Below are positions 6,090 through 52,250 of a stretch of DNA of 64,000 bases, in pieces (the first letter of the stretch is position 1; every line of letters begins with the position of its first letter). The stretch lies in contig NZ_CP096563.1 in NCBI RefSeq assembly GCF_023221595.1, positions 1,222,501-1,286,500 on the forward strand, in the 5' to 3' direction. The notes under the pieces are model-generated. The model was given only the letters and a program-made list of their open reading frames with translations. It searched no databases and was not told the DNA's origin. A program made the translations under genes and the position numbers. This DNA comes from Rhodococcus qingshengii JCM 15477. Lineage in GTDB: Bacteria > Actinomycetota > Actinomycetes > Mycobacteriales > Mycobacteriaceae.

Positions 6090-6113
6090 GAGATTCCGTC
6101 CTGACGAGGTTCT

Positions 6114-6145
6114 CATACTCTACCCTCCTGTAAGGGTAGAGTATG
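6114..6145 (-). promoter_or_regulatory. Perfect 12-bp inverted repeat, probable MerR operator of the SulP-merR operon
   Basis: CATACTCTACCC (6114-6125) and GGGTAGAGTATG (6134-6145) are exact reverse complements separated by eight bases. Size and layout fit a MerR-family operator, in which the regulator sits in an over-long promoter spacer. On the minus strand the right edge of the palindrome merges into TATGAG, a plausible -10 element 20-25 bases ahead of the SulP start codon. Autoregulation by the MerR protein at 4129-4554 is inference. Confidence 0.8.
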
Positions 6146-6386
6146 ACCGGAGATCTCGCTACGGTGCGAACTTCTGTCGAATTGTGTTTCCCCGCAGTGA
6201 ATCTCGATTCGCGAGATTGATCGAGAGGGGCAAGGCTCGCGGTGGCGATCAGATGTGACGACCAGTAACCCTTACCAAGTATTTACCTACTGTGTGGTTT
6301 TTGTTTATTGAAAACGGGTCAACTCGGGCGCTGGCTCCGTTACAGTTCGGCGGCAAACGTCAATCAGGTTGTTCCGAGAGGACATC
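6146..6386. other. Intergenic region between divergent SulP and secreted-protein genes
   Basis: About 240 bases with no supported gene. It must hold the promoter for the secreted-protein genes to the right. A T-rich patch at 6290-6312 is the most promoter-like part; no repeat or hairpin was convincing apart from the MerR operator at the left edge. Confidence 0.5.
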
Positions 6387-7601
6387 ATGTCAAAACGCCT
6401 ACTGAATGCTGCGCTCCTTACCGGCCTCCTTGCCGGTGGAACCGCTGTGGCCGTGATTCCGGCAACCGCGGCGCCCGTTGCAGAAACCACGTCGACAACG
6501 TTCCAGGTCACGTGCCGCGCAGTTCCGAGTGCGTTCTCCGGTCCTTCGTCAGACGGAAAGCCTGCTACGGTGCGGGTTTCGGCTCCGACGGTAGTCGCGC
6601 CAGGTCAGGTCTTCGACATCGACGTGGATCCGGGTAGCGTCCAGATCCCGAACGATGTGAGCGGCGCAAGCGTCAAGAAGATCTCGCGTCTGAAGATTGA
6701 TCTGCCGATTCCGACCAACGCGGAGTTCGTTTCGGCGACGGTCACCGATCCGGGCAATGTTATTGCCGGGAAACCTGCTTCGGTGATTCGTGTCAACGAA
6801 GACGGCACTCCCGCAGCGGACGGTCCGATACTCCGGTTGTCCGGCGCAAACGAAGCGATCGGCAACAGTCCGTCATCGTCGTCGGGTGCGCACGGCGGGC
6901 TTGCGATCAATGCTCAGTCCGGTGCCGAGACCAACATCGTCTTTCCGAAGATCAGAATCACCGTAAAGGCCGGGCCTTCCGGCGCAGTCGAAACCAATGT
7001 CCGGACTTCGGGTGCTGCAGGTACTTTCGGCGGGCCGGAGTCATTTTTGACCTTCCTCCCTCAGGTCAGTCACTGGCTCGCGGGAACCATCTGGGCGCCC
7101 ACATCCTGCTCGCCGCGCGACGCTGAGACCGGCCCCCTCAATGCCGGTGCCGGCGCCCTGGCATCCACGAAGATCGACGGGGACCTGGGGCCCGTTGATC
7201 CTGAGCCAGGCGCGGACATCGTGACTAAGCTCGAAGGACCGGCTACCGCCGCGACCGGTACCAAGGTGTCTTTTGCTTCTCACGTCGATCCGGAAAACAC
7301 AACGGGAACAGTACAGTTCATGGTCGACGGCAAACCCGTCGGTGACCCGCGGCCGGTGGTTCGCGGTATTGCGCGCCTGGATCTCACCTTCGGTAAGGCG
7401 GGTACCAAGTCCGTGACTGCAGTATTCACCGCTACCGGAGACGAGGCGAAGTACACGTCGGCGGCACACGTACTCACGGTGACCGGTGACACCACAGGTC
7501 CGGTCGATCCCGACCCGACCGATCCGGGCACTCCGGGCGGTCTCGGCAGCCTCGAGTCCGTTCTGCCGCAGCTGCCGACGGGTTCGCTCGGTGGCAAGTG
7601 A
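6387..7601 (+). CDS. Secreted protein with C-terminal Ig-like domain and Gly-Ser-Leu tail
   Basis: A 404-residue exported protein with a Sec signal peptide that ends near ATAAPVAE. The body (about residues 35-270) is an unrecognised beta-rich region with conserved cysteines (VTCRAVPS, PTSCSPRD). It is followed by an Ig-like repeat, about residues 280-370, containing the typical GTVQFMVDGKPVGDP strand pair of Big_5/Ig-like 3 domains. The tail is Pro-Asp-Thr rich and ends LPTGSLGGK. ATG 6387 follows GAGAGGACATC. The next gene encodes a protein of the same architecture, so the pair probably arose by duplication. A role at the cell surface or envelope is inference. Confidence 0.85.
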   Translation: MSKRLLNAALLTGLLAGGTAVAVIPATAAPVAETTSTTFQVTCRAVPSAFSGPSSDGKPATVRVSAPTVVAPGQVFDIDVDPGSVQIPNDVSGASVKKISRLKIDLPIPTNAEFVSATVTDPGNVIAGKPASVIRVNEDGTPAADGPILRLSGANEAIGNSPSSSSGAHGGLAINAQSGAETNIVFPKIRITVKAGPSGAVETNVRTSGAAGTFGGPESFLTFLPQVSHWLAGTIWAPTSCSPRDAETGPLNAGAGALASTKIDGDLGPVDPEPGADIVTKLEGPATAATGTKVSFASHVDPENTTGTVQFMVDGKPVGDPRPVVRGIARLDLTFGKAGTKSVTAVFTATGDEAKYTSAAHVLTVTGDTTGPVDPDPTDPGTPGGLGSLESVLPQLPTGSLGGK

Positions 7602-7656
7602 TCACGGTCCTACCTCACTGAACTTTCAATGGCCGAGTTCTTCTGAAAGGCAACAC

Positions 7657-8775
7657 ATGAACCCCCGCACTCTGGCAGTTTGCGCTGTCGTACCAGCACT
7701 CGCGGCCGGACTCCTCGCTGTGTCCGCGCCGGTGGCAGCGGCTTCCGATACCGTGACGCGGACAGTTTCCTTCGAACACAAGTGCCGGGTCGACGGCGCC
7801 ACCGATTGGGATTCGTCGTTCTCCGACAACATGGAGGTAACGGCACCCACGTCCGTGCGTCCCGGCGAACAGTTCACAGTGAAATTGCATCCAGGCACCA
7901 TGCGTAGTTCGGATTCGGACACCGGTCGAATCAAGTACGACATCGCATTACCGCAAGGGGCAACCCTGGTTTCGTACTCCCTCGTCGGTGATTCGTCGTC
8001 CAACTTGACCGGCGAGACTGCGGTGCTGCTCCGGGTGGGCGCAGACGGAAACGCAAACCCGGCGGGTGAGTACCTGCGAATTACCGGTGCCGGCAACAAG
8101 ACAGTCAACGACGGTCCGAGCGCGAACGACAACAAGCCCAAGGAAGGGCTGCAAGTCAAGGCGAACACGGACTTTCGTTTGCCGGCAGTCGAATTGAAAC
8201 TCGAAGCTCGGTCCGACGAGGGAAATGCGACGACGCACCTGCGCGCCGGGGCGACGAGCCCGAGCATCAAGATCAAAGACACGAGCATGAGTTTCGGTGA
8301 GTCCCGGTGGGTCAATGCCGCTGGGTATTGTGTTGCTGCGGGGGAAGGACGCAACGCCCTCTCGACTACCGAGGTCTTCACGACCAACCAGACCGAGACG
8401 ATGGTCGCTGTCGCACTGGAGGCACTGACGGGCGAAGACGTCAAGATTGCGGCGAGTATCGACCCGAACCCGGGTGAGGGAACGGTCGAGTTCTTCGACG
8501 GCGACACGAAGATCGGCAGCGCCACAGTCGATTCCAATGGCCATGCAGAACTGGTCTGGCCGTTCCGCGACCAGGGCGAGCATCGCATCACCGCAAAGTT
8601 CTTGGGTACCAAGAAGTTCAGTTCTTCGGAATCTGCGGACAAGACCGTGACCGTCACCGTGCCTGGTGTCATCGTCGTCGAGCCGGTGGATCCGACGGAA
8701 CCGGAAACTCCTGGTGGAACCGGAAGCCTCGGGGACATCTTCTCGAAGCTGCCGACGGGCTCACTCGGAGGCTGA
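7657..8775 (+). CDS. Secreted Ig-like-domain protein, paralogue of the preceding gene
   Basis: A 372-residue protein with a signal peptide (MNPRTLAVCAVVPALAAG, cleavage near VAAAS). As in its neighbour, an N-terminal beta-rich region with paired cysteines (EHKCRVDG, AAGYCVAAG) is followed by an Ig-like repeat (GEGTVEFFDGDTKIGSATV), a Pro/Glu/Thr linker, and the tail KLPTGSLGG, nearly the same as the LPTGSLGGK end of the upstream protein. GAAAGG lies upstream of the ATG. The 55-base gap suggests co-transcription. No catalytic motif is seen. Confidence 0.86.
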   Translation: MNPRTLAVCAVVPALAAGLLAVSAPVAAASDTVTRTVSFEHKCRVDGATDWDSSFSDNMEVTAPTSVRPGEQFTVKLHPGTMRSSDSDTGRIKYDIALPQGATLVSYSLVGDSSSNLTGETAVLLRVGADGNANPAGEYLRITGAGNKTVNDGPSANDNKPKEGLQVKANTDFRLPAVELKLEARSDEGNATTHLRAGATSPSIKIKDTSMSFGESRWVNAAGYCVAAGEGRNALSTTEVFTTNQTETMVAVALEALTGEDVKIAASIDPNPGEGTVEFFDGDTKIGSATVDSNGHAELVWPFRDQGEHRITAKFLGTKKFSSSESADKTVTVTVPGVIVVEPVDPTEPETPGGTGSLGDIFSKLPTGSLGG

Positions 8776-41366: not shown

Positions 41367-41735
41367 GTATTTCTCCTTTGGGTACAACCGACCAGTCGGG
41401 ATTGTGATGATGAGTGACGGTAGTCACGTGTGACTTGGATGTACAGACAATTTGAAACAATTCCGACAAAAGTATTACTGCGATCGCCTCCGCTACTACT
41501 TGTGGCTGTGAGGATTGAAATTTGTTGCAGTGCTCTGTGTCTCGTCATTCACCCACGAATCGCTGTGAGGTGCTTCGACCCGAAAAGGCGTTCGTCGACG
41601 GGAATATCGGACTCCTGTCGAAATCGAGGGGGCAATGTTTTGTCGGAGTCGCCAATGAGGGAAGTCAGGGCGAGTAACTTTGTCGAACAGCGGCTGATCG
41701 GTACTCCGGGCAGCTGCCCGAGAGAACGGATCGCC
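41367..41735. other. Divergent intergenic region, no confident gene
   Basis: About 370 bases between paralogue B and the WS/DGAT gene. No ribosome-site-bearing frame was seen except an alternative start for WS/DGAT at 41655. It should contain two divergent promoters. Confidence 0.4.
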
Positions 41736-43112
41736 ATGACGCTGATGCTGCCGCTCGACTCGATGTTCCTTCTGATGGAGTCACGGGAGCATCCCATGCA
41801 CGTCGGTGGCCTGTCGCTTTTCGTTCCGCCGGAAGGGGACGACGGCGAATTCGCCAGGTCGCTCTACCGTTCGCTGACCGACGTCGACTCGATTCGGCCC
41901 CTCTTCCGTCGCAAGCCGGTGCAGTTCTTGTCGAACTTCGCGCCGGTGCGTTGGACGGAGGACGAGGACGTCGATCTCGAATATCACGTCCGGTTGCTCG
42001 CGCTGCCCAAGCCGGGGCGAGTCCGCGAGTTGCTCGAGCTGACCTCCATGCTCCACGGCACGCTGCTCGATCGGCATCGGCCGCTGTGGGAGGCGTACGT
42101 GATCGAAGGTCTCGCCGACGGCCGAGTTGCCGTGTACATGAAGACGCACCACGCGCTCATGGATGGTGTGTCTGCTGTTCAGGCGTGGTACCGCAGCCTC
42201 TCGTCGGACCCGCTCGATCGAGAATCGATGCCTCCGTGGGCGCAGCGACCTTCTTCGGGGCGGGTTCGTGCCGGTCGCGGGCTGGACCTGCAGAGGCGGG
42301 TGGGCTCCGTGATCGAGACTGTGCAAGATGTGGTCGGGGTCGGCCCTGCGATAGTGAACGCCGCTGCCTCGGCAGTGAAGGACCACGTCGCACCGTTGCC
42401 GTTTGCTGCCCCGAAATCGATCTTCAACGTCCCGATCACCGGAGCGAGGCGTGTCGCCGCGCAGTCGTGGCCGATCGAGCGCCTGCGCAAGGTCAGCTGC
42501 GTTGCAGACGTGACGCTCAACGATGCGGTGTTGGCAATGTGCGCGGGTGCGCTACGGCGATACCTGATCGAACTGGACGAGTTGCCGGACAAACCGTTGA
42601 TCGCGATGGTGCCGGTATCCCTTCGCAAAGGCGAAGAGGGTGAGGCTTCCGGCAATGCCGTGGGTGCGGTGTTGTGTGATCTGGCAACCGAATTGGTAGA
42701 TCCGGCGGCCCGACTTCAGAGAGTTCACGACTCGATGAGTAGCGCCAAGTCCCTGATGTCGGGCCTGACGCCCCTGCAGATCACGGCGCTCAGTGCATTG
42801 AACGTCGCGGGTCTCGGGCTGCCGCTGATCCCTGGTTCATCCCGACTGATCACTGGGCGTCCAGTCTTCAATCTGGTGATTTCCAACGTCCCCGGCCCGA
42901 CAACGACGCGCTATTGGAATGGCGCGAAACTCGAGAGCTGTTACCCGGCATCGATTCCGTTGGACGGGCAGGCGATGAACATCACCGTCATCGGCTACGC
43001 GGACACCATGCAGTTCGGGCTCGTCGGCTGCCGCCGCAATGTTCCGCACTTGCAGCGGCTCCTCGGCCATCTCGAGGAATCCTTGAGTGAGCTCGAAGCC
43101 GCCGCAATTTGA
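41736..43112 (+). CDS. Wax ester synthase/acyl-CoA:diacylglycerol acyltransferase (WS/DGAT)
   Basis: A 458-residue enzyme. The catalytic motif HHALMDG is at residues 138-144, and PLDSMFLLMESREHPMHVGG is the family start, with the conserved C-terminal NVPGPTT and PLDGQAMNITVIGY segments. WS/DGATs join acyl-CoA to alcohols or diacylglycerol, making wax ester or triacylglycerol storage lipid. Start at ATG 41736 matches the family N-terminus; ATG 41655 with GGAG upstream would add 27 residues. Convergent with the NylB-like hydrolase. Confidence 0.95.
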   Translation: MTLMLPLDSMFLLMESREHPMHVGGLSLFVPPEGDDGEFARSLYRSLTDVDSIRPLFRRKPVQFLSNFAPVRWTEDEDVDLEYHVRLLALPKPGRVRELLELTSMLHGTLLDRHRPLWEAYVIEGLADGRVAVYMKTHHALMDGVSAVQAWYRSLSSDPLDRESMPPWAQRPSSGRVRAGRGLDLQRRVGSVIETVQDVVGVGPAIVNAAASAVKDHVAPLPFAAPKSIFNVPITGARRVAAQSWPIERLRKVSCVADVTLNDAVLAMCAGALRRYLIELDELPDKPLIAMVPVSLRKGEEGEASGNAVGAVLCDLATELVDPAARLQRVHDSMSSAKSLMSGLTPLQITALSALNVAGLGLPLIPGSSRLITGRPVFNLVISNVPGPTTTRYWNGAKLESCYPASIPLDGQAMNITVIGYADTMQFGLVGCRRNVPHLQRLLGHLEESLSELEAAAI

Positions 43113-43127
43113 ATGCGTGAGGAAACC

Positions 43128-44339
43128 TCAGCTGACGGGGACCGCTCCGCGAGCGTTCGATACCAAGTGAGTGCCGATCTGAAGGAACGCGGGTACGAAG
43201 TTCGGGGTGTCGATTGCAGGCGAAAGGATGTGGGCTCCGAAATGCGCGACCACAAACTCCAGGTCGCGTGAGATCAAGAGCCTCTGGCCATGGATTCCGC
43301 TTGCCATGAACGATCCGAACGGATCATTGAGGATCCACCAGTAGTCGTGGTAGCTCATCGTCGCGGGGGAATCGACAGGGGCACGCGGGCTTCTGACCTC
43401 CGAAGGATAGCCTGCGGGCACCCCCCCGGTCATCGATCGCGCGATGTGCGGTGGGATCACCTGACGATCCTCGACGGCACCGTCACAACGAATCATCTCA
43501 CCCACTCTGGCCACGTCTCGAAGGGTCGCACTGAATCCGCCCGCCGCCATTTCCGTTCCAGCGGAGTCGACTATGTAGAACGCATCTTCTTCGGCTCCGA
43601 TTCTTGACCAGACCAGCTCACTGAGTAGTTCGGCGAGTGAAGTTCCGGTCACGCGGCGCAGTATTTCTCCGACAGTCTCGACATTGCCGTTCTCGTAGCG
43701 GAATTCGACGCCGGTCGGGCCCGCAGTGCGTGCCGTGGCGAGGTGCTCGAGAATGGTCTCCGGGCCGCGGTAATTCATGGGGCGCAGCTTCGGGGCGACT
43801 ACGGCCCAGAAACGGCTGGCTTCGATGGTGCGATGGAACGGCCGACCGCCGTACGTTACATCAGTGCCCATGTGAAGAAGGTCCTGAATCCGATTGTCTC
43901 CGAACGCAGTTCCTGCCAACTCGGGAATGAATTTCGACGCCCGATCGTCGCGGTCGAACAATCCTTGTGCTTCGACCAGTGCAGCCATCAAACCGACGTA
44001 GGATTTCGCCATCGATGCATTGAGGTGCGGTTCGTGCGGTTCGCAACCGTGCAAGTAACTCTCGTACACGATGCGTCCCCGATGTAGCACTGCGATACCG
44101 TCACTGTGCGCACCCGCGAGGAACTCGGACACCGTCTGCTTCGGCTGATCCGGAAGGTTCAATGTGACACCGGACAGATCCGTGTAGTCGGTCGGGAGGG
44201 TCCATTTGGGTCCGTCGCCGCGCCACACACGGCGAGTCGCAACCATCTCTCGTATGGTTGTGGCTTGTTGGCGCACGTCGGCCGGGTCGGTGAATCCGCG
44301 CGCCCAGGGGATGTCATCCGTTGCGATGTTTCGTGCCAT
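43128..44339 (-). CDS. Beta-lactamase-fold serine hydrolase (6-aminohexanoate-dimer hydrolase/esterase-like)
   Basis: A 403-residue cytoplasmic enzyme of class C beta-lactamase fold. Ser109-x-x-Lys112 (NASMAKSYVG) and the Tyr motif RYENGN are present, as in NylB-type amide hydrolases and EstB-type esterases. No signal peptide, so it acts inside the cell. It follows the MFS transporter on the same strand, 74 bases downstream, probably as an operon; it may release the acid that the CoA ligase then activates. That link is inference. Confidence 0.88.
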   Translation of the reverse strand: MARNIATDDIPWARGFTDPADVRQQATTIREMVATRRVWRGDGPKWTLPTDYTDLSGVTLNLPDQPKQTVSEFLAGAHSDGIAVLHRGRIVYESYLHGCEPHEPHLNASMAKSYVGLMAALVEAQGLFDRDDRASKFIPELAGTAFGDNRIQDLLHMGTDVTYGGRPFHRTIEASRFWAVVAPKLRPMNYRGPETILEHLATARTAGPTGVEFRYENGNVETVGEILRRVTGTSLAELLSELVWSRIGAEEDAFYIVDSAGTEMAAGGFSATLRDVARVGEMIRCDGAVEDRQVIPPHIARSMTGGVPAGYPSEVRSPRAPVDSPATMSYHDYWWILNDPFGSFMASGIHGQRLLISRDLEFVVAHFGAHILSPAIDTPNFVPAFLQIGTHLVSNARGAVPVS

Positions 44340-44413: not shown

Positions 44414-45739
44414 CTAGTGCCGAAGCGCATTCTGTTCATGTAGGGGGTTGGCGGATGGCCCGGAGAGTAGGGCCGCACTGTCGCGGGCGTAGGGGCGATA
44501 CAGTGCGCCTGAAGCGACCCCGTTGACGGTGGTCAGCACTACGGTGACGATGAAGAGCGCGCCTTGCAATCCGATTCTGTCGCCGAGGGTTCCGACCAAG
44601 ACAGCGTATCCGGCGTAGGCCAGCGCTTCGACTGTCGAGACGGAGACGGCAAAGGCCAGGGCTCGCAGTTCCGGACGAACTACGGCCATGATAATCGGCC
44701 GATTGACCACTGGGACCTGACCTTGAAGGACGCCGACGATCCCGAACAAGACCGCGTAGACGCCGATGCTGTTCCAGGAAATCTGCGTAGCGATCAGTGC
44801 TGCGGCCGCGAATCCGAGTTGGCTGGCCTGAAGCATGATGATGCGGCCGTTTCGGGGTCGTTTGACGTGTACGGCGTCGTTGACTCGTCCGCCGACGAAC
44901 GTGCCGAGCAGGTACCCGATTGCGAAGGGCGGTGCGATGATCGAAGCAGTTGCGGTCGTGAATCCGTGCTCCTCGACGAGAAATACGATGCTGAAGCTCA
45001 TGATGACGTTCTGGCCCGAGAATGCGCGTTGTACGAGTAAGTATCGGAATGTCTTGATAGCGAGTAGCTCTCGTATCCCTTCGCGCCAGAATCTTGCTTT
45101 GGAGCCGAGATCGTCGGTGGTCGTCTGTGCGGGCGCATCGGCGGATTCAGGATCGTCGAGGAAAAGCATGATAAGCACACCGATGGCGATGCAGATTGCA
45201 CCGGTGATGATGTATCCGTAGCGCCATCCATCTTCGAAGCGAGACAAAAGCCCGAATATCGGGGCGGTCGCGCCGGTGATGACGGCGACGCCGCCGTATA
45301 CCAATCCCGTTGCGCGGCCCCTCCGGGCGTCCTCGTACAGATCTCCGAGGATGGACAATGCAATCGAGCCGGCGCCGGCGAAACCTGCGGCGCCGATCGC
45401 ATAGAGGACGAGAAACTGAGTGAAACTGCCGGACAATCCGGCCAGGATTACCCAGACACCCCAGAACCCTGAACAGATGGCAAGTACCGACTTACGAGAA
45501 TATCGTCGGGCAAGGAACGCCCAGGGGATTGCCGTGAAGACCCCGACGGCCTTGGCCACTGCAACGATCGTGCCGAGCGCCGCCGATGACAATCCCATGG
45601 CCTCGCGCATGAGCGGGAAGAGCACGGACGTCACGCTGCTTTCGGCGTTGTCCATTGCCGTGGAGCCGGTCAGGAGTGCGAGGTTCTTACCTCGCCGACT
45701 GCGTGGAAACTGAGTAGGTGCCGCAAGTTCTGTGGTCAT
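44414..45739 (-). CDS. MFS transporter
   Basis: A 441-residue protein with 12 predicted helices and the loop 2-3 motif (FLARRYSRKSVLAICSGFWG). Start at ATG 45739; the frame extends to 45844 but without family match. It is likely the importer, or exporter, of the substrate handled by the acyl-CoA ligase cluster. A TAGACATACTGTCTA palindrome lies 109 bases upstream, which links it to the TetR at 49.5 kb. Confidence 0.92.
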   Translation of the reverse strand: MTTELAAPTQFPRSRRGKNLALLTGSTAMDNAESSVTSVLFPLMREAMGLSSAALGTIVAVAKAVGVFTAIPWAFLARRYSRKSVLAICSGFWGVWVILAGLSGSFTQFLVLYAIGAAGFAGAGSIALSILGDLYEDARRGRATGLVYGGVAVITGATAPIFGLLSRFEDGWRYGYIITGAICIAIGVLIMLFLDDPESADAPAQTTTDDLGSKARFWREGIRELLAIKTFRYLLVQRAFSGQNVIMSFSIVFLVEEHGFTTATASIIAPPFAIGYLLGTFVGGRVNDAVHVKRPRNGRIIMLQASQLGFAAAALIATQISWNSIGVYAVLFGIVGVLQGQVPVVNRPIIMAVVRPELRALAFAVSVSTVEALAYAGYAVLVGTLGDRIGLQGALFIVTVVLTTVNGVASGALYRPYARDSAALLSGPSANPLHEQNALRH

Positions 45740-45847
45740 TGTTCCCTCTCGAAAAATGCCGATGATTGCTTGGGCGCGGTGGGCAGCGCTCGGCGGTCGA
45801 CTGTGCACTGAGTCACAGTGAGCATTAATGGAGACAATATACATAAA

Positions 45848-45862
45848 TAGACATACTGTCTA
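45848..45862. promoter_or_regulatory. Palindrome A, putative TetR operator upstream of MFS gene
   Basis: TAGACATACTGTCTA is a perfect 6+3+6 inverted repeat. Similar sites lie at 49405-49419 and 51378-51392, each before another transcription unit of the same cluster. Confidence 0.7.
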
Positions 45863-45871
45863 TCTCTTTGT

Positions 45872-46186
45872 TCAAAGTTGGATGACAGTGCAGGTGCCGA
45901 GTCCCGCAACCGTGACGCCTACGGCCAAAGTCGCCATGACAATGAACGGTATTTCTCGAGAATCCTTGTCGTCCAGACTGAGTCGACGATGACGGATTGT
46001 CGTGCCCACGATGACTCCGGCAGTCGTAATGATGAGCGTGGCGAACACTGCGATTCGTAGAACGGACGGATGCAAAGCGATTTCGCGACCGGTGATCACT
46101 GACACAGTCACAGAGGAGAGGGCAGTTCGTCGCCAGGCGAGCACGGTTCGCTCGGGTTGCAGTCCGGGCGGCTCGTTTTTCGTCAC
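45872..46186 (-). CDS. DUF202 membrane protein (YidH-like), gene 2 of pair
   Basis: A 104-residue protein with the DUF202 signature PERTVLAWRRTALSSVTVSV and three membrane helices. Its GTG start (46186) overlaps the TGA of the preceding gene, so translation is coupled. YidH-type proteins are of unknown function; pairs of adjacent DUF202 genes are common in actinobacteria. Confidence 0.85.
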   Translation of the reverse strand: MTKNEPPGLQPERTVLAWRRTALSSVTVSVITGREIALHPSVLRIAVFATLIITTAGVIVGTTIRHRRLSLDDKDSREIPFIVMATLAVGVTVAGLGTCTVIQL

Positions 46187-46512
46187 AACACGGTCATCCC
46201 TACGCCGAGACCCGCAACGACACACACCCCACCGACGAGAAGCGCGATCATCGGTGACGTGGGTAAGGGAAGATCACGCCTCATCGCGGTTTGGACGGCC
46301 TTCCAGTGTCTGAGCGCGCCGAGCGCTACAGCCGACGCCACGACGGTGCACACGACTCCGAGCATTTTGTACATATTGTTGTCGTTTTCGGATACGTAGA
46401 ACTGACCGACTGCGACGCCGCCTGCCAACAACCCCAACGCAGTTCGTATCCAAGCCAGAAATGTTCGTTCGTTCGCAAGACTGAATCTGTAGTCCGGTTC
46501 GTGATCGATCAC
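46183..46512 (-). CDS. DUF202 membrane protein (YidH-like), gene 1 of pair
   Basis: A 109-residue protein with YRFSLANERTFLAWIRTALG, the DUF202 signature, followed by three helices. Start is GTG 46512, eight bases after a strong GGAGG ribosome site; the open frame extends to 46803, but that part overlaps the acyl-CoA dehydrogenase gene and lacks support. It overlaps the second DUF202 gene by four bases. Confidence 0.85.
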   Translation of the reverse strand: MIDHEPDYRFSLANERTFLAWIRTALGLLAGGVAVGQFYVSENDNNMYKMLGVVCTVVASAVALGALRHWKAVQTAMRRDLPLPTSPMIALLVGGVCVVAGLGVGMTVL

Positions 46513-46613
46513 GGTGATTGCCTCCGAAATGTCGAGTGCCCGCCAGGCCGTCACGTCGAGCGTATGACGACCTGGCGGGCGCGAAATTGGATACGACTGT
46601 CCTTGAATGATCT

Positions 46614-47798
46614 TCAGGTGGTGAGTAATTGACGCGCGATTCCGTTCTTCTGAATCTCGGAGGAGCCGGTCAGGATTCGGAACATCCTCAACCGCTGGAA
46701 CAGTGATTCGACCTCCGAACCACGGATGACCCCGGCTTTTCCGTGAATCTGAACTGCGTGGTCGGCGATGGTGAAGGCCTTCTCGGCAACGAACAGCTTG
46801 CACATAAATGCTTCGGTACGCGGACTCCCACCGGCATCGAGTGTGGCGAGTGCGTCGTAGGTCATCGAGCGCGCAGCGTAGTAGTCGGTCGCCATGTCGG
46901 CGAGTTTGTGTTGGATGGACTGCAACATCGCAAGAGGAGCGCCCTGCACCTGGCGAGTCTTGCTGTACTCCAACGACAATTCCAGTGCTCGGCGGGCTCC
47001 GCCGAGGACGGTGGGGCAGTGCAACAACCGGTTGACTGTGACTCGACCGAGTCCGATTCTCAAGCCTTCGCCCACATTTCCGAGAAGCTGTTCCGGCCCC
47101 ACGTAGCAGCCGTCGAGGATGATGTCCGCTTCGATGTGCTGACCGGACATCGGGACGTCACCGTCCGCCACTGTGCAGCCAGGAGAATCCAAGTCGACCA
47201 GGAAGGCCGAGTACGAATCCGGTCCGTCGCCGTCGGATGCCATCTTTGCGATCAGGACCGAAAAGTCGGCGAAGGGGCCCGCGGACGAGAACACCTTGTG
47301 GCCGTTCAGGCGCCATCCGGCACCGTCCGGGGTAGCTGTGGTGAGCATGCCGCGAACATCGGAACCTGCGTCGTTCTCGGTGAGAGAAAAGCAGCATGCC
47401 TTCTCTCCTCGCAGCACCGGAATCAAGTACTTTTCCAACTGGTGCTCGGTGGCGTATTGAAAGATCGATCCCGCGCGGAGTGGGCCACCCATGTCTCCGA
47501 GCACGGACGTCGCGAGGACCCGCGGCGATGCACCGACCTCTTCTTTGAGTGCGGCGAGTTCGGTATAGGTGAGGTTCTGGCCGCCGAGTTCAGTGGGGAG
47601 GTGTATTCCGTAGAAGCCGAGTTCGCGGCTGCGTCTCCACACTGGCTCGAGTGTCTCACGGATGTAGTGGGATTCTTGAGTGAGACCCAATTCGGCTTCG
47701 TACTCGGCTAGTTCGCCGTCGAGATAGTCGCGTAGACGCTCGACGAGCGATTGAAGTCTTGGATTGTCTTCGTAGGTAGGGGTGAGAGCGAATGACAT
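46614..47798 (-). CDS. Acyl-CoA dehydrogenase family protein with unusual catalytic-base position
   Basis: A 394-residue ACAD fold. CFSLTENDAGSDVRGMLTTA is the FAD/substrate motif and GWRLNGHKVFSSAG the second. The C-terminal motif reads FRILTGSSEIQKN, where most enzymes have IYEGTSEIQR; the catalytic Glu position is Thr. The IVD-type alternative Glu (LERL) reads VNRL here. The base is therefore not where expected; ACAD10/11-like relatives use other residues. It lies 12 bases after the CoA ligase gene, clearly in one operon. Confidence 0.9.
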   Translation of the reverse strand: MSFALTPTYEDNPRLQSLVERLRDYLDGELAEYEAELGLTQESHYIRETLEPVWRRSRELGFYGIHLPTELGGQNLTYTELAALKEEVGASPRVLATSVLGDMGGPLRAGSIFQYATEHQLEKYLIPVLRGEKACCFSLTENDAGSDVRGMLTTATPDGAGWRLNGHKVFSSAGPFADFSVLIAKMASDGDGPDSYSAFLVDLDSPGCTVADGDVPMSGQHIEADIILDGCYVGPEQLLGNVGEGLRIGLGRVTVNRLLHCPTVLGGARRALELSLEYSKTRQVQGAPLAMLQSIQHKLADMATDYYAARSMTYDALATLDAGGSPRTEAFMCKLFVAEKAFTIADHAVQIHGKAGVIRGSEVESLFQRLRMFRILTGSSEIQKNGIARQLLTT

Positions 47799-47810
47799 GT
47801 CTATTTCCTG

Positions 47811-49367
47811 TCAGTTGACGTGACGGTCAGCGGTGGTCCAGTAGGTCGCGCGAATCGCGCGGCGATCGATCTTGCCGTTTCGGTTGACAGGCAACGAATC
47901 TGCGAAGTCGACCGAACGTGGCTTCTTCATGCTTGCCAGACGCGTCGAGCAGTGCGCGATCAATTCCATTGCGGTGGTGTCAGTTCCATCTCTGGTCACG
48001 ACAACAGCCTTGACTGCTTCGCCCCACTTCGGATCGGGAACTCCCACTACGCAGACTTCGGAAACGGCGGGATGTTCGTACAAAGCGGCCTCCACCTCGC
48101 TGCAGTAGATGTTGAATCCGCCCGAGATGATCATGTCCTTCTTGCGGTCGACGATGAACAGGTAGCCGTCTTCGCGGAAATAGCCGACATCGCCCGTGTG
48201 GACCCAGCCGTTCCTGAACGTCTCAGCCGACAGCTCGGGTTCGTGGAAGTATTCGCGGACACAGTCCGGACCACTGGCTACGATCTCGCCGATCGTGCCG
48301 GCCGGGACCTGTACGCCGTTGTCGTCGACCACGCGAACATCGGTGTCGTATGCCGGCCGGCCGCACGAGAGAAGAAGCTCAGGGTCGGATTCGATACCGC
48401 GCACCACGTCTTCAGCGGTCAAGACAGTGACGACGCTGGTCGTTTCGCCGAGCCCGTATCCCTGAATGACGATGGGACCGAACACCTTTACCGCGTCGCG
48501 CAACCGTTGTGGAGAAACCGGCGCTGCGCCTACGCCGATGCAGCGCAGAGAGCTCAGGTCGACGTCGGTAACCGACGGATGGTCCATCAGCAAGTTGAGC
48601 ATCGTCGGGACCACCATGGTGGTGGTGATCCGCTCACGTTCGATGGTCTGCAGGAACGTCCTCGTGTCCCATGCCGGCAGGATCACCACTGCGGCGCCCC
48701 TGGCGAACATTCCGAGCATCACCATGCCGGAAGCGTGTGTGATCGGGCCGGGGGCGAGGTAGCGATCACCAACAGTCGGCGCGCCTTCGGGGCTCATCAG
48801 TCGCTTGCGCATGTTCGCCAAGCGGTTGCCGTGACTCTGGACCGCAGCCTTGAGCTTGCCGGTGGACCCGGATGTGTAGTTGAGGACAGCCGGGGCGTCA
48901 ATGTCGACGTCCACCTCGACGTTGTCTTCGCTGCCCCTTGTCGTCAGTTCGTGATAACTGTCCGCGCCGGGAGTCGAAGTGCTGTAGTCGATCACCCTGC
49001 AGTTCAGCCCTGCGTCGGCGACGACCTTCAGCGCCATCTCGGCATGGGCGGGGTCGACGAAGAGGACACGCACATCGGCGTCGGCGAGGATATGCCCGAG
49101 TTCGTCGGCGCCCAGTCGTGCGTTGATCGGCACCCTGACGAATCCTCCCTTGTACAAGGCCATTTCGGTCACTACGAGTTCCCCGCAGTTTCCGGCAAAG
49201 GTTCCGATCATGTGTCCGGGCCGTGTCCCGGTCACTGCGAGAGCGGACGCGAGACGGTTTGCGGCCGTATCGAGCTCGCTGTAGGTCCACCGGCCTTCGC
49301 CGCAGACAAGGGCTTCGAGATCGGGGTAGTAGCTGGCGCTTCGGGCGAGATAAGTACCGAGGTTCAT
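47811..49367 (-). CDS. AMP-dependent acyl-CoA synthetase/ligase
   Basis: A 518-residue adenylating enzyme. The P-loop is LNYTSGSTGKLK, A5-type GYGLGET, A8-type GWVHTGDVGYFREDGYLFIV and the A10 lysine NGKIDRRAIR. Such enzymes activate a carboxylic acid to its CoA thioester via acyl-AMP. The ribosome site GGAG fits ATG 49367 (six-base gap) better than ATG 49373, which directly abuts it. Substrate is not deducible. It shares an operon with the acyl-CoA dehydrogenase and a promoter region with the divergent TetR. Confidence 0.93.
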   Translation of the reverse strand: MNLGTYLARSASYYPDLEALVCGEGRWTYSELDTAANRLASALAVTGTRPGHMIGTFAGNCGELVVTEMALYKGGFVRVPINARLGADELGHILADADVRVLFVDPAHAEMALKVVADAGLNCRVIDYSTSTPGADSYHELTTRGSEDNVEVDVDIDAPAVLNYTSGSTGKLKAAVQSHGNRLANMRKRLMSPEGAPTVGDRYLAPGPITHASGMVMLGMFARGAAVVILPAWDTRTFLQTIERERITTTMVVPTMLNLLMDHPSVTDVDLSSLRCIGVGAAPVSPQRLRDAVKVFGPIVIQGYGLGETTSVVTVLTAEDVVRGIESDPELLLSCGRPAYDTDVRVVDDNGVQVPAGTIGEIVASGPDCVREYFHEPELSAETFRNGWVHTGDVGYFREDGYLFIVDRKKDMIISGGFNIYCSEVEAALYEHPAVSEVCVVGVPDPKWGEAVKAVVVTRDGTDTTAMELIAHCSTRLASMKKPRSVDFADSLPVNRNGKIDRRAIRATYWTTADRHVN

Positions 49368-49404
49368 GGACATCTCCAGAGAAAATCGACATCACGAATG
49401 TTAA

Positions 49405-49419
49405 TGGACAGTCTGTCTA
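49405..49419. promoter_or_regulatory. Palindrome B, putative TetR operator between CoA ligase and tetR
   Basis: TGGACAGTCTGTCTA, the same 6+3+6 repeat as site A with one mismatch between arms. It lies in the divergent promoter region of the CoA-ligase operon and the tetR gene. Confidence 0.75.
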
Positions 49420-49482
49420 TATTCGATCGTCCTGTCAATGTTGAACTATGCTTCGTACAACAGTGCGAAGGAAGGGAACCCA

Positions 49483-50091
49483 ATGCCTCCAGAAGACAGA
49501 CGTGTCCGGCGTACCCGACGATTGCTGCGGGATGCCTTGGTCTCGCTCGTTCTGGAACGGGGATATGCCGGGATCACCGTCGAAGACATCACGGACCGTG
49601 CAGATTTGGGTCGGGCGACGTTCTACAGTCACTACACCGACAAAGACGATTTGCTCGGTCAAGTCGTGTCCGATCTGGCCGATGACCTGCAAGAGCGGCT
49701 CGGTCCACTCATTCCCGCCTCTTCGATCGGATTCACCGGCAAGCCTGTGCTCGAGATGTTCAGGCATGCCGCTGAGGAACGTGACGTCTACCGTGTGATC
49801 CTGCGTGGTGAGGGGGATGGCAAGGCGCTGCGAAAGTTCGTCGAAGACCGCAGCGTCGCCGCTGTGCGGATATTTTCCGCACGGGCAGAAGCGCTCGGGG
49901 TTACTCCGCGAATCGACATCGAAGTACTCTCGCGGGCATGGGTGGGTGAACAGATCGCGGTCATGCAGTGGTGGCTCGAGTCCGACCCGCCACCGCTGAC
50001 GCCGGAAGAAGTCACCGAGATGCTGCTCGAACTTTCGTTGCGGGGACGTTACTGGTCTTCGGGTTTCGACGGCGAATTGAAATCCGGATAG
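49483..50091 (+). CDS. TetR-family regulator of the acyl-CoA cluster
   Basis: A 202-residue protein: RRVRRTRRLLRDALVSLVLE starts the HTH domain and LGRATFYSHYTDKDDLLGQV is the recognition region. Start at ATG 49483 has AAGGGA seven bases upstream; the frame extends to 49438. Probably represses its own gene, the CoA-ligase operon, the MFS operon and the CaiB gene through the TAGACAnnnTGTCTA-like sites. The 3' end overlaps the convergent CaiB gene by 43 bases. Confidence 0.9.
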   Translation: MPPEDRRVRRTRRLLRDALVSLVLERGYAGITVEDITDRADLGRATFYSHYTDKDDLLGQVVSDLADDLQERLGPLIPASSIGFTGKPVLEMFRHAAEERDVYRVILRGEGDGKALRKFVEDRSVAAVRIFSARAEALGVTPRIDIEVLSRAWVGEQIAVMQWWLESDPPPLTPEEVTEMLLELSLRGRYWSSGFDGELKSG

Positions 50092-51257
50092 CCGCTGTCA
50101 CGTCTCGCCGTTGCCGCGGCGGCTTCGTCGAGAACCGACTCGGTGTGCTCGCCCACGTACGGAGTCGGAAGTCGAAAACTGTTCAGTCCCAAGCTGAACT
50201 GCGCCGGGAATCTCATCTGGGGCCAGCTTTCTCCGTTTTCGGTCGCGACCTCGCTGAACAGGTTTCGAGCGACGACATGGGGATCGCTCATCAGTTGTCC
50301 GGCGTCGGTGAACACCGGCGCCCACGGGGCATTGATCGCAGTCAACGATTTTTCCCACCACCCGTATGTGTGCGTACCGAAGGTGGTGACCAGGAGTTCC
50401 CGCAACTCTGCCTTGTGCTGTGTTCGGGTCCATCGATCGTCGTAGCGCAGTGTGTTCAGTGCCGGAAACTCAGCGCTGAATGCTGTTCGGAACTCGATCC
50501 AGAACTTGTCTTCGAAAGTGGCAAGTGAAAGCAAGCAACCGTCGGACGTCTCGAAAATGTCGTTGTCTCCCTGGACGGTCGGTGAATCGGTAGGGTTCTC
50601 GATATCGCGGATCATGAGCGCGAAAGGCGCGCACCAGGCGGTTGCAGCCTCGGCGAGGGAAATGTCTATGTGTTGTCCGCGTCCGTGCTTGTCCACGCTG
50701 GCGAGAGCAACCGAGATGGACAGTGCTGCGTACATCGAACCCACCAGATCACCGGCCCGGATACCAGGGCGGGTGACGACTCCGTCGGTGCACCCGGGAA
50801 CTGCGAAAAAGCCGGAAAGGCCGAGGAAGTTCAATTCGTGCCCCGGCTTGTCGGCATAGGGTCCGGACTGCCCGTAACCGGTGATCGAACATAATACGAT
50901 GCGTGGGTTGGCTTTTCGAAGTACGTCGTAGCCGAGTCCCATGCCTGCCAGTACCTGTGGCCGGAACCCCTCGACCACTGCATCTGCAGTCTCGACTAGT
51001 CGAAGGAACGTCTCGCGATCGGATTCGAGACGGAGATCGAGCGCGATCGATCGCTTGTTCCTGTTCAACGAAGCCATCCGTTCACCAGCTGCCCGCGTGG
51101 GATCAGGTCGCTTCGGGTTCTCGACCTTGACCACGTCGGCGCCCAGATCTGCGAGCAGCGTCGTCGCAAACGGGCCGGGCAGAAGGCGAGAGAGGTCGAG
51201 AACGCGCTTGCCGTGTAAGAAACTCCATTCCGACGTGTTGTCGCTGTCCATGTTCAC
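50049..51257 (-). CDS. CaiB/BaiF-type CoA-transferase (or alpha-methylacyl-CoA racemase-like)
   Basis: A 402-residue class III CoA-transferase. Catalytic Asp170 (GIRAGDLVG) aligns with Asp169 of formyl-CoA transferase. GHELNFLGLSG holds His140, which is also a catalytic residue in racemases of the same fold, followed by Glu where AMACR has Asp. The sequence thus fits a transferase or a racemase. LSRLLPGPFATTLLADLGAD is the N-terminal signature. It overlaps the TetR gene convergently and has site C upstream. Confidence 0.92.
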   Translation of the reverse strand: MNMDSDNTSEWSFLHGKRVLDLSRLLPGPFATTLLADLGADVVKVENPKRPDPTRAAGERMASLNRNKRSIALDLRLESDRETFLRLVETADAVVEGFRPQVLAGMGLGYDVLRKANPRIVLCSITGYGQSGPYADKPGHELNFLGLSGFFAVPGCTDGVVTRPGIRAGDLVGSMYAALSISVALASVDKHGRGQHIDISLAEAATAWCAPFALMIRDIENPTDSPTVQGDNDIFETSDGCLLSLATFEDKFWIEFRTAFSAEFPALNTLRYDDRWTRTQHKAELRELLVTTFGTHTYGWWEKSLTAINAPWAPVFTDAGQLMSDPHVVARNLFSEVATENGESWPQMRFPAQFSLGLNSFRLPTPYVGEHTESVLDEAAAATARRDSGYPDFNSPSKPEDQ

Positions 51258-51377
51258 ACTCCGAAGACTGTCGAGGCAGTAGCCGATAACGCCAAACCCT
51301 CATCGGCACGGCATTGTTCGTAACTGCTGGATCCCAGGATGATCAACCTGATCGATAATTGGCAGACTATCGATTAA

Positions 51378-51392
51378 TGAACAGGATGTCTA
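51378..51392. promoter_or_regulatory. Palindrome C, weaker putative TetR operator upstream of the CoA-transferase gene
   Basis: TGAACAGGATGTCTA resembles TAGACAnnnTGTCTA with two changes in the left arm; the right arm is intact. It overlaps the stop codon of the gene at 51390 and lies 121 bases upstream of the CaiB start. Confidence 0.5.
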
Positions 51393-52250
51393 CGAATTGA
51401 TTGCGGCGAGGTTTTGTTCTGCTTTGTCGACGCGACGCTCAGCAACACGGAGTTCCTTCTCGGATTCTCGAACCGCAGCGTCACTGGTCTTCTCGGCGTT
51501 CCGTGCGAACTGCCGTTGCTGCTCAGCGTGCTCGAGTTCGGTGCGCAGTTCTTCAACGCGCCGTTCGACGTCGGAGAGCGTCGTTCTGGCTTCCTGGAGT
51601 TCGGCGGTCTCGGACTTCACCCGGCGGCGGATCTCGTCGGCCTGCGCCGTGGCTTCCTTCAATTCTGCTTTTGCTCTGGCTTGTTCGGCCTTCGGTTCCG
51701 GAGTTTTCGACTTCGGAGTCGTCGGCTCTTCAATCGCGGCGTGCTGCGGTGATTTCTCATTCACCACGGCGAGCCCGGCGGGTCCGAAACCGCTGTAACT
51801 CGCCGCGGTCACGACCCGTCCGAGTCGAACCTGCGCGGCAGTCTCCTCATCGGCCAGAGCGGCATTGAGGGTCTGCGCGACATCACGTAAAGCATCCTCG
51901 CTGACGCTTTTTCCCCGTGAAGCCGCGATCTCACCGGATTTGTGGGCGAGACTCCGCACCACCTGCTGCCTCTGTGTCGTCAGCCGTCGCAAGTCCGGGC
52001 CCGAGAGATGGCGTTGAGCGTCGCGTAGCGATTCGCCAAGCGCGAGAAGTGCATCCAGATCCTCTGGTGCATCGCGCGAGATGAGATTGACCAACCACCC
52101 CACGGTGGTCGGCTTCCGAAGTTTGCCGATTTCCGCGGCCAATGTGCGGTCGTTGTCCTCCCGGGCGGCCTTCACATGATGTGTACGCGCCTCGACGAAC
52201 TCGCCGGGGTCGAGCCCGTACAGTTCGTTGGCGACATCATCGAGGGTCAC
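51390..52250 (-). CDS. Hypothetical coiled-coil protein
   Basis: A 286-residue cytoplasmic protein. The N-terminal half is globular (LYGLDPGEFVEARTHHVKAA, KPTTVGWLVNLISR), a pattern found in many actinobacterial hypothetical proteins. The C-terminal half, from about 175, is an Ala/Glu/Arg coiled coil. No catalytic motif. GTG start 52250. It is on the same strand as, and upstream of, the CaiB gene but separated by 130 bases and site C. Confidence 0.78.
   Translation of the reverse strand: MTLDDVANELYGLDPGEFVEARTHHVKAAREDNDRTLAAEIGKLRKPTTVGWLVNLISRDAPEDLDALLALGESLRDAQRHLSGPDLRRLTTQRQQVVRSLAHKSGEIAASRGKSVSEDALRDVAQTLNAALADEETAAQVRLGRVVTAASYSGFGPAGLAVVNEKSPQHAAIEEPTTPKSKTPEPKAEQARAKAELKEATAQADEIRRRVKSETAELQEARTTLSDVERRVEELRTELEHAEQQRQFARNAEKTSDAAVRESEKELRVAERRVDKAEQNLAAINS

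What the first reader, a model, noticed from the sequence alone, without database searches (positions are those of the whole stretch)
45848..51392. One TetR with three matching operators may control a whole acid/ester-degradation regulon
TAGACATACTGTCTA (45848-45862), TGGACAGTCTGTCTA (49405-49419) and TGAACAGGATGTCTA (51378-51392) share a 6+3+6 layout and lie upstream of the MFS-hydrolase operon, between CoA-ligase and tetR, and upstream of the CaiB gene. Seen: the repeats and positions. Inferred: that the TetR at 49483 binds them, and that hydrolase, transporter, CoA ligase, acyl-CoA dehydrogenase and CoA-transferase process one substrate. The substrate is unknown.
Basis: partly seen in the sequence, partly recalled or inferred. 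Interest (0 to 1): 0.7.

Follow-up and report, generated by a model that had tools for sequence, protein, structure and literature searches.

The report
TetR switch for ester-degradation genes
A Rhodococcus carries a gene-switch protein whose matching DNA landing pads sit before a small cluster of genes that look made for importing and breaking down an unknown ester-like compound; many relatives keep the arrangement, so the switch is very probably real, but it is an ordinary type of switch and its chemical trigger is unknown.

Summary
A 27-bp model built only from 16 orthologous loci of other genomes ranks the three sites and two weaker neighbours as the top five positions in the 64 kb window. 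The motif lies between tetR and the CoA-ligase gene in 17 of 17 first-set loci and, at 15 bits or more, upstream of tetR in 11 of 15 held-out loci (200 shuffled sets: 0). It also recurs before MFS, hydrolase or DUF202 units elsewhere. The window's sites sit on predicted promoters: on the -10 of the ligase operon, on the -35 of MFS-hydrolase and CaiB. The best reading is a local TetR repressor of ligase-dehydrogenase-DUF202, MFS-hydrolase and CaiB. Among the loci examined CaiB is linked only here and in one close relative. The substrate is unknown; orthologous loci often carry alkyl sulfatases or FGE-dependent sulfatases, a hint at (sulfate) esters. Nothing was tested at the bench. New member of a known kind.

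The parts
45848..45862 (.). operator 1, upstream of the MFS-hydrolase operon
   Evidence: 23.6 bits with the model trained on other loci; a site also lies upstream of the MFS orthologue in L014, L015, L016 (12.2 bits) and L017
45829..45843 (.). weaker operator-like copy 19 bp from operator 1; overlaps the predicted -10
   Evidence: 21.1 bits; 4 of 6 dyad pairs
45834..45862 (-). predicted MFS promoter: TAGACA (45862-45857), 17 nt, TATTGT (45839-45834)
   Evidence: 1 found, 0.2 expected; geometry kept in L014-L017
49405..49419 (.). operator 2 in the tetR / CoA-ligase gap (extended footprint about 49399-49425)
   Evidence: 34.1 bits; present in 17 of 17 first-set loci
49410..49438 (-). predicted CoA-ligase promoter: TTGACA (49438-49433), 17 nt, CAGACT (49415-49410); the -10 lies inside operator 2
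   Evidence: TTGACA or TTGACG at this exact distance in 22 of 28 loci with the ligase; not flagged by the consensus scan
49447..49452 (+). possible tetR -10 (TATGCT)
   Evidence: inference from sequence
51378..51392 (.). operator 3, upstream of the CaiB-type gene; overlaps the stop codon of 51390-52250 (-)
   Evidence: 19.7 bits; orthologous site in L014 at 9892
51359..51373 (.). weak operator-like copy 19 bp from operator 3; overlaps the predicted -10
   Evidence: 12.4 bits; 3 of 6 dyad pairs
51364..51392 (-). predicted CaiB promoter: TAGACA (51392-51387), 17 nt, TAGTCT (51369-51364)
   Evidence: not flagged by the consensus scan
49483..50091 (+). TetR-family regulator, 202 aa
   Evidence: TetR_N 39.7 bits, cut-off 24; TetR fold by AlphaFold2 and Foldseek
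47811..49367 (-). AMP-binding acyl-CoA ligase
   Evidence: PF00501 and PF13193
46614..47798 (-). acyl-CoA dehydrogenase
   Evidence: PF00441, PF02770, PF02771
46183..46512 (-). DUF202 membrane protein b (start approximate)
   Evidence: PF02656; linked to tetR in many loci
45872..46186 (-). DUF202 membrane protein a
   Evidence: PF02656
44414..45739 (-). MFS transporter
   Evidence: PF07690
43128..44339 (-). class C beta-lactamase-fold serine hydrolase (NylB / family VIII esterase type)
   Evidence: PF00144; 18 of its 19 PDB matches are named 6-aminohexanoate-dimer hydrolase; SMAK at 109 and YEN at 215
50049..51251 (-). CaiB-type class III CoA-transferase; overlaps the 3' end of tetR
   Evidence: PF02515

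Best explanation
The TetR protein at 49483-50091 is a local repressor. A dimer binds the dyad TRGACA-NNN-TGTCYA, with AT-rich outer arms (about GTTA on the left and TAAC on the right). Bound at operator 2 it covers the predicted -10 of the ligase-dehydrogenase-DUF202 operon; at operators 1 and 3 it covers the predicted -35 of the MFS-hydrolase operon and of the CaiB gene, in part with a weaker neighbouring copy 19 bp away that covers the -10. Repression is by blocking RNA polymerase. A small inducer, most likely the imported acid or its CoA thioester, releases it. The proteins would then import an ester-like compound, hydrolyse it, activate the acid with CoA, dehydrogenate it and, in this strain, move CoA between acids. 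Shown by computation: the sites, their conservation, their fit to promoter-like sequences, and gene linkage. Inferred: binding by this TetR, repression rather than activation, inducer, pathway and substrate. Confidence is for the regulatory part; I give the pathway order about 0.4.
For: Only three exact matches in 7.5 Mb, all within 5.5 kb around tetR. A matrix trained on 16 other loci puts the three sites and two 19-bp neighbours on top of the 64 kb window. Site in the tetR-ligase gap of 17 of 17 loci (window plus 16 with a TetR of 70-93% identity): 14 with 0, 2 with 1 and 1 with 2 mismatches to TRRACANNNTGTYYA. Held-out: 11 of 15 tetR upstream regions score at least 15 bits and 9 of 15 at least 20; no region reached either in 200 sets of shuffles. 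Elsewhere in those 15 loci, 15 of 1039 windows score at least 10, and by my reading each precedes a ligase (2), MFS (6), hydrolase (2), DUF202 (4) or exported-protein (1) gene; the MFS label for L086 rests only on length and position against L085. The site travels with the transporter: MFS has its own site where it is separated from the ligase operon (window, L014-L017, L023, L027), and no other position scores above 6.3 in L020, L029 or L074, where it closely follows the hydrolase in the ligase operon. TTGACA or TTGACG exactly 13 bp upstream of the operator in 22 of 28 loci with the ligase, and TRGACA-17-TANNNT at 7 of 7 MFS and CaiB promoters of the window and L014-L017. Full-length TetR and ligase occur in the same five of 28 Rhodococcus genomes. 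Divergent TetR regulators under 200 bp from the neighbour mostly repress it (PMC3511530, passages read); here the gap is 115 bp.
Against: No binding, expression or induction data. The 12-base core alone is not specific: 13 of 23 Rhodococcus genomes without a full-length TetR orthologue have 1-2 exact TRGACANNNTGTCYA hits, 14 sites; with flanks they score -4.1 to 21.3, and 2 of 14 reach 19, overlapping the weakest true sites; 12 of 14 lie in at least one open frame. L080 and L081 have no site upstream of tetR, L089 only 9.6 and L086 12.1 bits. The ligase -35 is missing in 6 of 28 loci, all distant (L085-L088, L090, L091). The TRGACA-17-TANNNT geometry is absent at the other 18 of 25 secondary sites examined, all outside the window and L014-L017, so the exact blocking geometry is not general. 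Site 3 is weak and CaiB is linked in only 1 of 16 first-set loci. The consensus scan found a promoter only at MFS. The predicted tetR -10 lies 28 bp beyond operator 2, so self-regulation is uncertain.
Confidence: 0.82

Rival explanations
1. TetR controls only the divergent ligase-dehydrogenase-DUF202 operon and MFS-hydrolase; the CaiB site is a chance or decaying match and CaiB serves another pathway.
For: Site 3 is the weakest of the three (19.7 bits, 4 of 6 dyad pairs) and sits on a stop codon; CaiB is in 1 of 16 other first-set loci.
Against: The site upstream of CaiB is kept, and better, in Rhodococcus sp. P-2 (TGGACAGTATGTCTA, 25.9 bits), and both have TAGACA-17-TANNNT promoter geometry like MFS. 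These are close relatives, so conservation by descent weighs less.
Confidence: 0.15
2. The conserved elements are promoter parts (TTGACA-like and TANNNT hexamers at fixed spacing), not operators, and the dyads are incidental.
For: In the window the sites coincide with predicted -35 or -10 hexamers, and the 19-bp spacing of second copies equals promoter geometry.
Against: Both arms of the dyad are kept (T1, A4, C5, A6 and T10, G11, T12 invariant in 17 of 17; outer arms also conserved), which a promoter does not need; most distant secondary sites keep the dyad without the promoter hexamers; exact sites are confined to the tetR locus in 5 of 5 genomes that have this TetR.
Confidence: 0.05
3. The TetR acts as an activator or dual regulator at MFS and CaiB, where the operator lies on the -35.
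For: Operator position differs between units: on the -10 at the ligase, on the -35 at MFS and CaiB; some TetR-family proteins activate (AtrA, with a 425-bp gap, in PMC3511530, passages read).
Against: A site covering the -35 hexamer itself would be expected to block polymerase (general knowledge); in that paper five of five tested TetR regulators under 200 bp repressed their divergent neighbours.
Confidence: 0.08

Closest known systems
Divergent local TetR-family repressors (the '200 bp rule', PMC3511530; passages read)
   Same: regulator divergent to its target with a 115-bp gap; palindromic operator on the predicted target promoter
   Different: three separate transcription units under one operator type; substrate unknown
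KstR2, FadR, FasR: TetR-family regulators of acyl-CoA metabolism (named; functions recalled)
   Same: TetR fold; targets include an acyl-CoA ligase and dehydrogenase; FasR, FadR and EthR2 are among the Foldseek hits
   Different: sequence similarity only weak (KstR2 E 8e-5; FasR model 25 bits against a cut-off of 330); operators of those regulators were not compared here; ligand untested
DarR (PMC10636190; passages read)
   Same: TetR-family protein of Rhodococcus and mycobacteria that binds overlapping palindromes as two dimers; possible parallel for the 19-bp double sites
   Different: sequence match only over residues 15-85; spacing not shown to match
sdsA/sdsB alkylsulfatase system of strain ATCC19151 (one passage in PMC3696852)
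   Same: hydrolysis of an ester whose alcohol product goes to beta-oxidation; alkyl sulfatases of this family occur in many orthologous loci
   Different: regulator there is a putative LysR type; the window's own alkyl sulfatase (1534-3447) carries no operator

Membership tests
TetR family of transcriptional regulators | N-terminal TetR helix-turn-helix domain | tested here: met
   PF00440 39.7 bits, cut-off 24
TetR family of transcriptional regulators | all-helical fold of the family | tested here: met
   nine helices, mean pLDDT 81.5; the 50 listed Foldseek hits are TetR-family regulators by title or, where the title gives only a name such as EthR2 or DesT, by recall
TetR family of transcriptional regulators | palindromic operator at its own locus, conserved among orthologues | tested here: met
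   17 of 17 first-set loci; 11 of 15 held-out at 15 bits or more
TetR family of transcriptional regulators | binds DNA and is released by a ligand | not testable with these tools
   needs purified protein
FasR / KstR2-type acyl-CoA-responsive regulators | membership by curated model | tested here: not met
   FasR model 25 bits against 330; none of the 10 NCBIfam matches of this TetR reached its cut-off
FasR / KstR2-type acyl-CoA-responsive regulators | acyl-CoA as ligand | not testable with these tools
   fold resemblance only
NylB / family VIII esterase-type serine hydrolase (gene 43128-44339) | class C beta-lactamase fold family with SxxK and YxN | tested here: met
   PF00144 86.7 bits; SMAK at 109, YEN at 215; that these are the catalytic motifs is recalled
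NylB / family VIII esterase-type serine hydrolase (gene 43128-44339) | hydrolysis of 6-aminohexanoate dimers | not testable with these tools
   substrate assay needed
Sulfate-ester degradation regulon | a sulfatase under the operator | tested here: not met
   in the window no operator lies near the alkyl sulfatase at 1534-3447 (top six positions); in some orthologous loci the operator does precede such genes, e.g. DUF202, FGE and sulfatase in L079, L080, L089

The most novel reading that the evidence does not exclude
This TetR subfamily governs a modular actinobacterial regulon for uptake and breakdown of surfactant-like esters. Under one conserved operator, unrelated hydrolases are swapped between lineages (serine esterase, metallo-type alkyl sulfatase, FGE plus type I sulfatase), along with DUF202 membrane proteins and an undescribed glycine-rich exported protein, mostly around a ligase-dehydrogenase core. 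It would be a TetR-controlled route for sulfate or carboxylate esters, with double operators in a 19-bp frame that matches promoter spacing.
Probability: 0.3. Interest if true: 0.55.

Novelty: new member of a known kind. Interest (0 to 1): 0.4.

Why it matters
It gives a TetR subfamily a well-defined operator and a short target list that can be tested in a laboratory Rhodococcus. The swapping of unrelated ester and sulfate-ester hydrolases next to the same operator points to a substrate class and gives context for DUF202 proteins, a Pfam domain of unknown function. As a type of control it is ordinary.

Tried and rejected
Further sites in the genome: TRRACANNNTGTCTA with one mismatch gives 11 forward and 13 reverse hits against 33 and 31 for the reversed control, so there is no genome-wide excess and I claim no other targets.

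A separate 'tandem operator' discovery: offset 19 ranked first to third of 46 offsets around 33 of 33 group A and B sites (27 first, 5 second, 1 third), but first at none of the 11 group C sites (second at L087). I first read this as cooperative arrays. One search shows that much of it follows from promoter spacing: TTGACA of the ligase promoter, or the -10 of MFS and CaiB, falls at that offset. Clear double operators remain, to my eye, only in L023, L027, L079, L081 and L089. Group B was chosen because such neighbours had been seen, so its ranks are not independent evidence.

Promoter geometry as a general rule for secondary sites: TRGACA-17-TANNNT fits 7 of 25, only in the window and L014-L017. 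Not general.

Naming the substrate from the enzymes: ligase and dehydrogenase hits are spread over many families. Rejected.

Alkyl sulfatase at 1534-3447 as part of the window's regulon: no operator there. Not included.

Literature: ten searches. Searches returned no paper; none of the titles listed by the others is about this regulator or motif, but searches listed only 15 of 193, 15 of 108 and 10 of 69 papers. I read passages of three papers, and otherwise only listings. The library lacks most subscription papers, so this is no proof of absence.
Full report
WHAT IS THERE. The three 15-mers are at the stated coordinates. The order is hydrolase (43128-44339, -), MFS (44414-45739, -), operator 1, DUF202a and DUF202b (45872-46512, -), acyl-CoA dehydrogenase (46614-47798, -), CoA ligase (47811-49367, -), operator 2, tetR (49483-50091, +), CaiB (50049-51251, -), operator 3, and a coiled-coil gene (51390-52250, -) whose stop codon lies in operator 3. 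The tetR start at 49483 is preferred over 49438 because GGAAGGG lies just upstream and several orthologues align from residue 1 there.

MORE THAN CHANCE. In the window, 5 strand-matches to TRRACANNNTGTCTA at up to one mismatch fall on the three places; shuffles average 0.32 and 0 of 100 reach 5. In the 7.5 Mb genome the exact pattern is found nowhere else. Because that pattern was read off the sites, I built a 27-bp matrix from tetR-ligase gap sites and scanned each locus with its own site left out. For the window, trained on 16 other loci, the top five of all positions are 49405 (34.1), 45848 (23.6), 45829 (21.1), 51378 (19.7) and 51359 (12.4); the next is 8.2.

CONSERVATION. A scan of named genomes gave 40 loci, 16 of them with a TetR of 70-93% identity (L014-L029); the other 24 (24-42% over the best segment) were not used for sites. 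All 16 have ligase and dehydrogenase divergent from tetR; hydrolase orthologues are in 9 of 16, MFS orthologues in 9, DUF202b in 9, and CaiB in 1 (L016 ends at its DUF202 gene). The motif is in the gap in 17 of 17, window included: 14 with no mismatch to TRRACANNNTGTYYA, 2 with one and 1 with two, starting 31-63 bp from the ligase start. Positions T1, A4, C5, A6, T10, G11 and T12 are invariant, and the outer arms (roughly GTTA and TAAC) are conserved.

HELD-OUT TEST. Whole-genome searches found the TetR in 6 of 28 Rhodococcus genomes at E 1e-20 (one, G018, only a 64-residue match), 13 of 401 genomes drawn from the family at 1e-50 and 8 of 394 drawn from the class at 1e-40, the own genome counted each time. 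From these and three plasmid records I took 15 loci not used for the matrix, after dropping three duplicates; L085 and L086 are near relatives and not independent. 11 of 15 tetR upstream regions score at least 15 bits and 9 at least 20; none did in 200 shuffled sets. Failing: L080 and L081 (no site), L089 (9.6) and L086 (12.1). Of 1039 other windows in these loci 15 score 10 or more; by my reading they precede ligase (2), MFS (6), hydrolase (2), DUF202 (4) or an exported-protein gene (1). In L026 and L078 further sites (18.2 and 23.9 bits) precede such an exported-protein gene.

THE SITE MOVES WITH THE GENES. Where MFS is set apart from the ligase operon it has its own site (window, L014, L015, L016, L017, L023, L027; L016 only 12.2 bits). 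Where it closely follows the hydrolase in the ligase operon (L020, L029, L074) no other position exceeds 6.3 bits. In L088, L090 and L091 the hydrolase is a separate unit and has a site (20.4, 11.0 and 22.8 bits).

LIMITS OF SPECIFICITY. In the five Rhodococcus genomes with the full TetR, every exact TRGACANNNTGTCYA lies at this locus, 7 sites. Of 23 genomes without it, 13 still have 1-2 hits (14 sites). With flanks these score -4.1 to 21.3, 2 of 14 at 19 or more, and 12 of 14 lie in at least one open frame. So the core alone is not diagnostic. The ligase (E 1e-170) occurs in the same five genomes as the full TetR.

PROMOTER FIT. On the ligase strand TTGACA (20) or TTGACG (2) stands exactly 13 bp before the operator in 22 of 28 loci that have the ligase, which puts a CANNNT -10 inside the dyad; absent in L085-L088, L090 and L091. 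For the window the -35 is 49438-49433 and the -10 49415-49410. At MFS and CaiB of the window and L014-L017 the operator's outer half is the -35: TRGACA, 17 nt, TANNNT in 7 of 7; at the other 18 secondary sites examined this geometry is absent. The consensus scan flags the MFS promoter (1 found, 0.2 expected) but not the other two. Operators on -10 and -35 suggest repression by exclusion in these close relatives. The likely tetR -10, TATGCT at 49447-49452, is outside the operator, so self-control is open.

NINETEEN BASE PAIRS. Second, weaker dyads lie 19 bp from operators 1 and 3 and in many relatives. Dyad pairing at that offset averages 3.42 of 6 against at most 2.42 at other offsets 15-45. 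This set was chosen after seeing the neighbours, and in the window the second copies overlap the -10, so promoter spacing explains much of it. L023, L027, L079, L081 and L089 have convincing double dyads. Two TetR dimers side by side is therefore possible, not shown; DarR binds overlapping palindromes as two dimers (PMC10636190, passages).

THE PROTEIN. The AlphaFold2 model (15 sequences) has mean pLDDT 81.5 and pTM 0.79. Foldseek hits include EthR2, FasR with C20-CoA, FadR and DesT with palmitoyl-CoA. This makes an acyl-CoA or lipophilic ligand reasonable but does not show it. The arginine-rich N-terminus (DRRVRRTRR) could contact the AT-rich outer arms; inference.

PATHWAY. The hydrolase keeps SMAK and YEN and is closest to proteins named 6-aminohexanoate-dimer hydrolase. 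Ligase and dehydrogenase are not specific to one substrate. A tblastn with the L023 alkyl sulfatase finds relatives in L018, L020, L023, L027 and L029 (5 of 16; in L020 and L029 on the opposite strand) and in L082-L087 (6 of 15), directly behind the dehydrogenase in L018, L082, L083, L084 and L087; L026 has a more distant one by Pfam. Nine of twelve copies, the window's included, were checked and keep HxHxDH. L079, L080 and L089 have FGE plus a type I sulfatase after DUF202; for L081 only the sulfatase was scanned. L019, L021, L022, L024, L025 and L028 show neither the serine hydrolase nor the alkyl sulfatase; type I sulfatases were not sought there. So a shared ester or sulfate-ester theme is a lead, not a result.

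VERDICT. CaiB is linked only here and in Rhodococcus sp. P-2 among the loci seen, so it is probably a recent addition (inference), and the substrate remains unknown. This is a well-supported new example of local TetR control.

Noticed in passing
window 1534-3447 (+) and 4590-6116 (-): Full-length alkyl sulfatase of the SdsA/YjcS/sec-alkylsulfatase type (4nur E 1e-214) near a SulP sulfate permease gene; no operator nearby.
   Followed up: partly
L078 8805-9575, L026 8867-9571, L079 6834-7556 and 6061-6807 (coordinates with tetR on the + strand), L080 7014-7868, L081 6994-7695, L089 9610-10359 and 10379-11155: A family of about 230-285 aa proteins with a signal-like N-terminus and a glycine-rich hydrophobic C-terminal half, near this tetR in six loci; no Pfam match for the four members scanned.
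   Followed up: partly
window 45872-46512: A pair of DUF202 membrane-protein genes behind the ligase and dehydrogenase; DUF202 accompanies this tetR even in loci where no ligase was found (L079, L080, L081, L089).
   Followed up: partly
window 6369-7601 and 7486-8775 (+): Two overlapping open frames, each with a Big_3_5 Ig-like domain.
   Followed up: no
window 41430-43112 (+): Wax ester synthase/diacylglycerol acyltransferase gene beside the hydrolase; kept in Rhodococcus sp. P-2 at 98.7% identity over 453 residues.
   Followed up: no
L014 11941-14301 (+): In Rhodococcus sp. P-2 a HAD-type gene and a type I sulfatase gene (PF00884) lie between the coiled-coil gene and the ABC gene; in the window these two are adjacent.
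   Followed up: no
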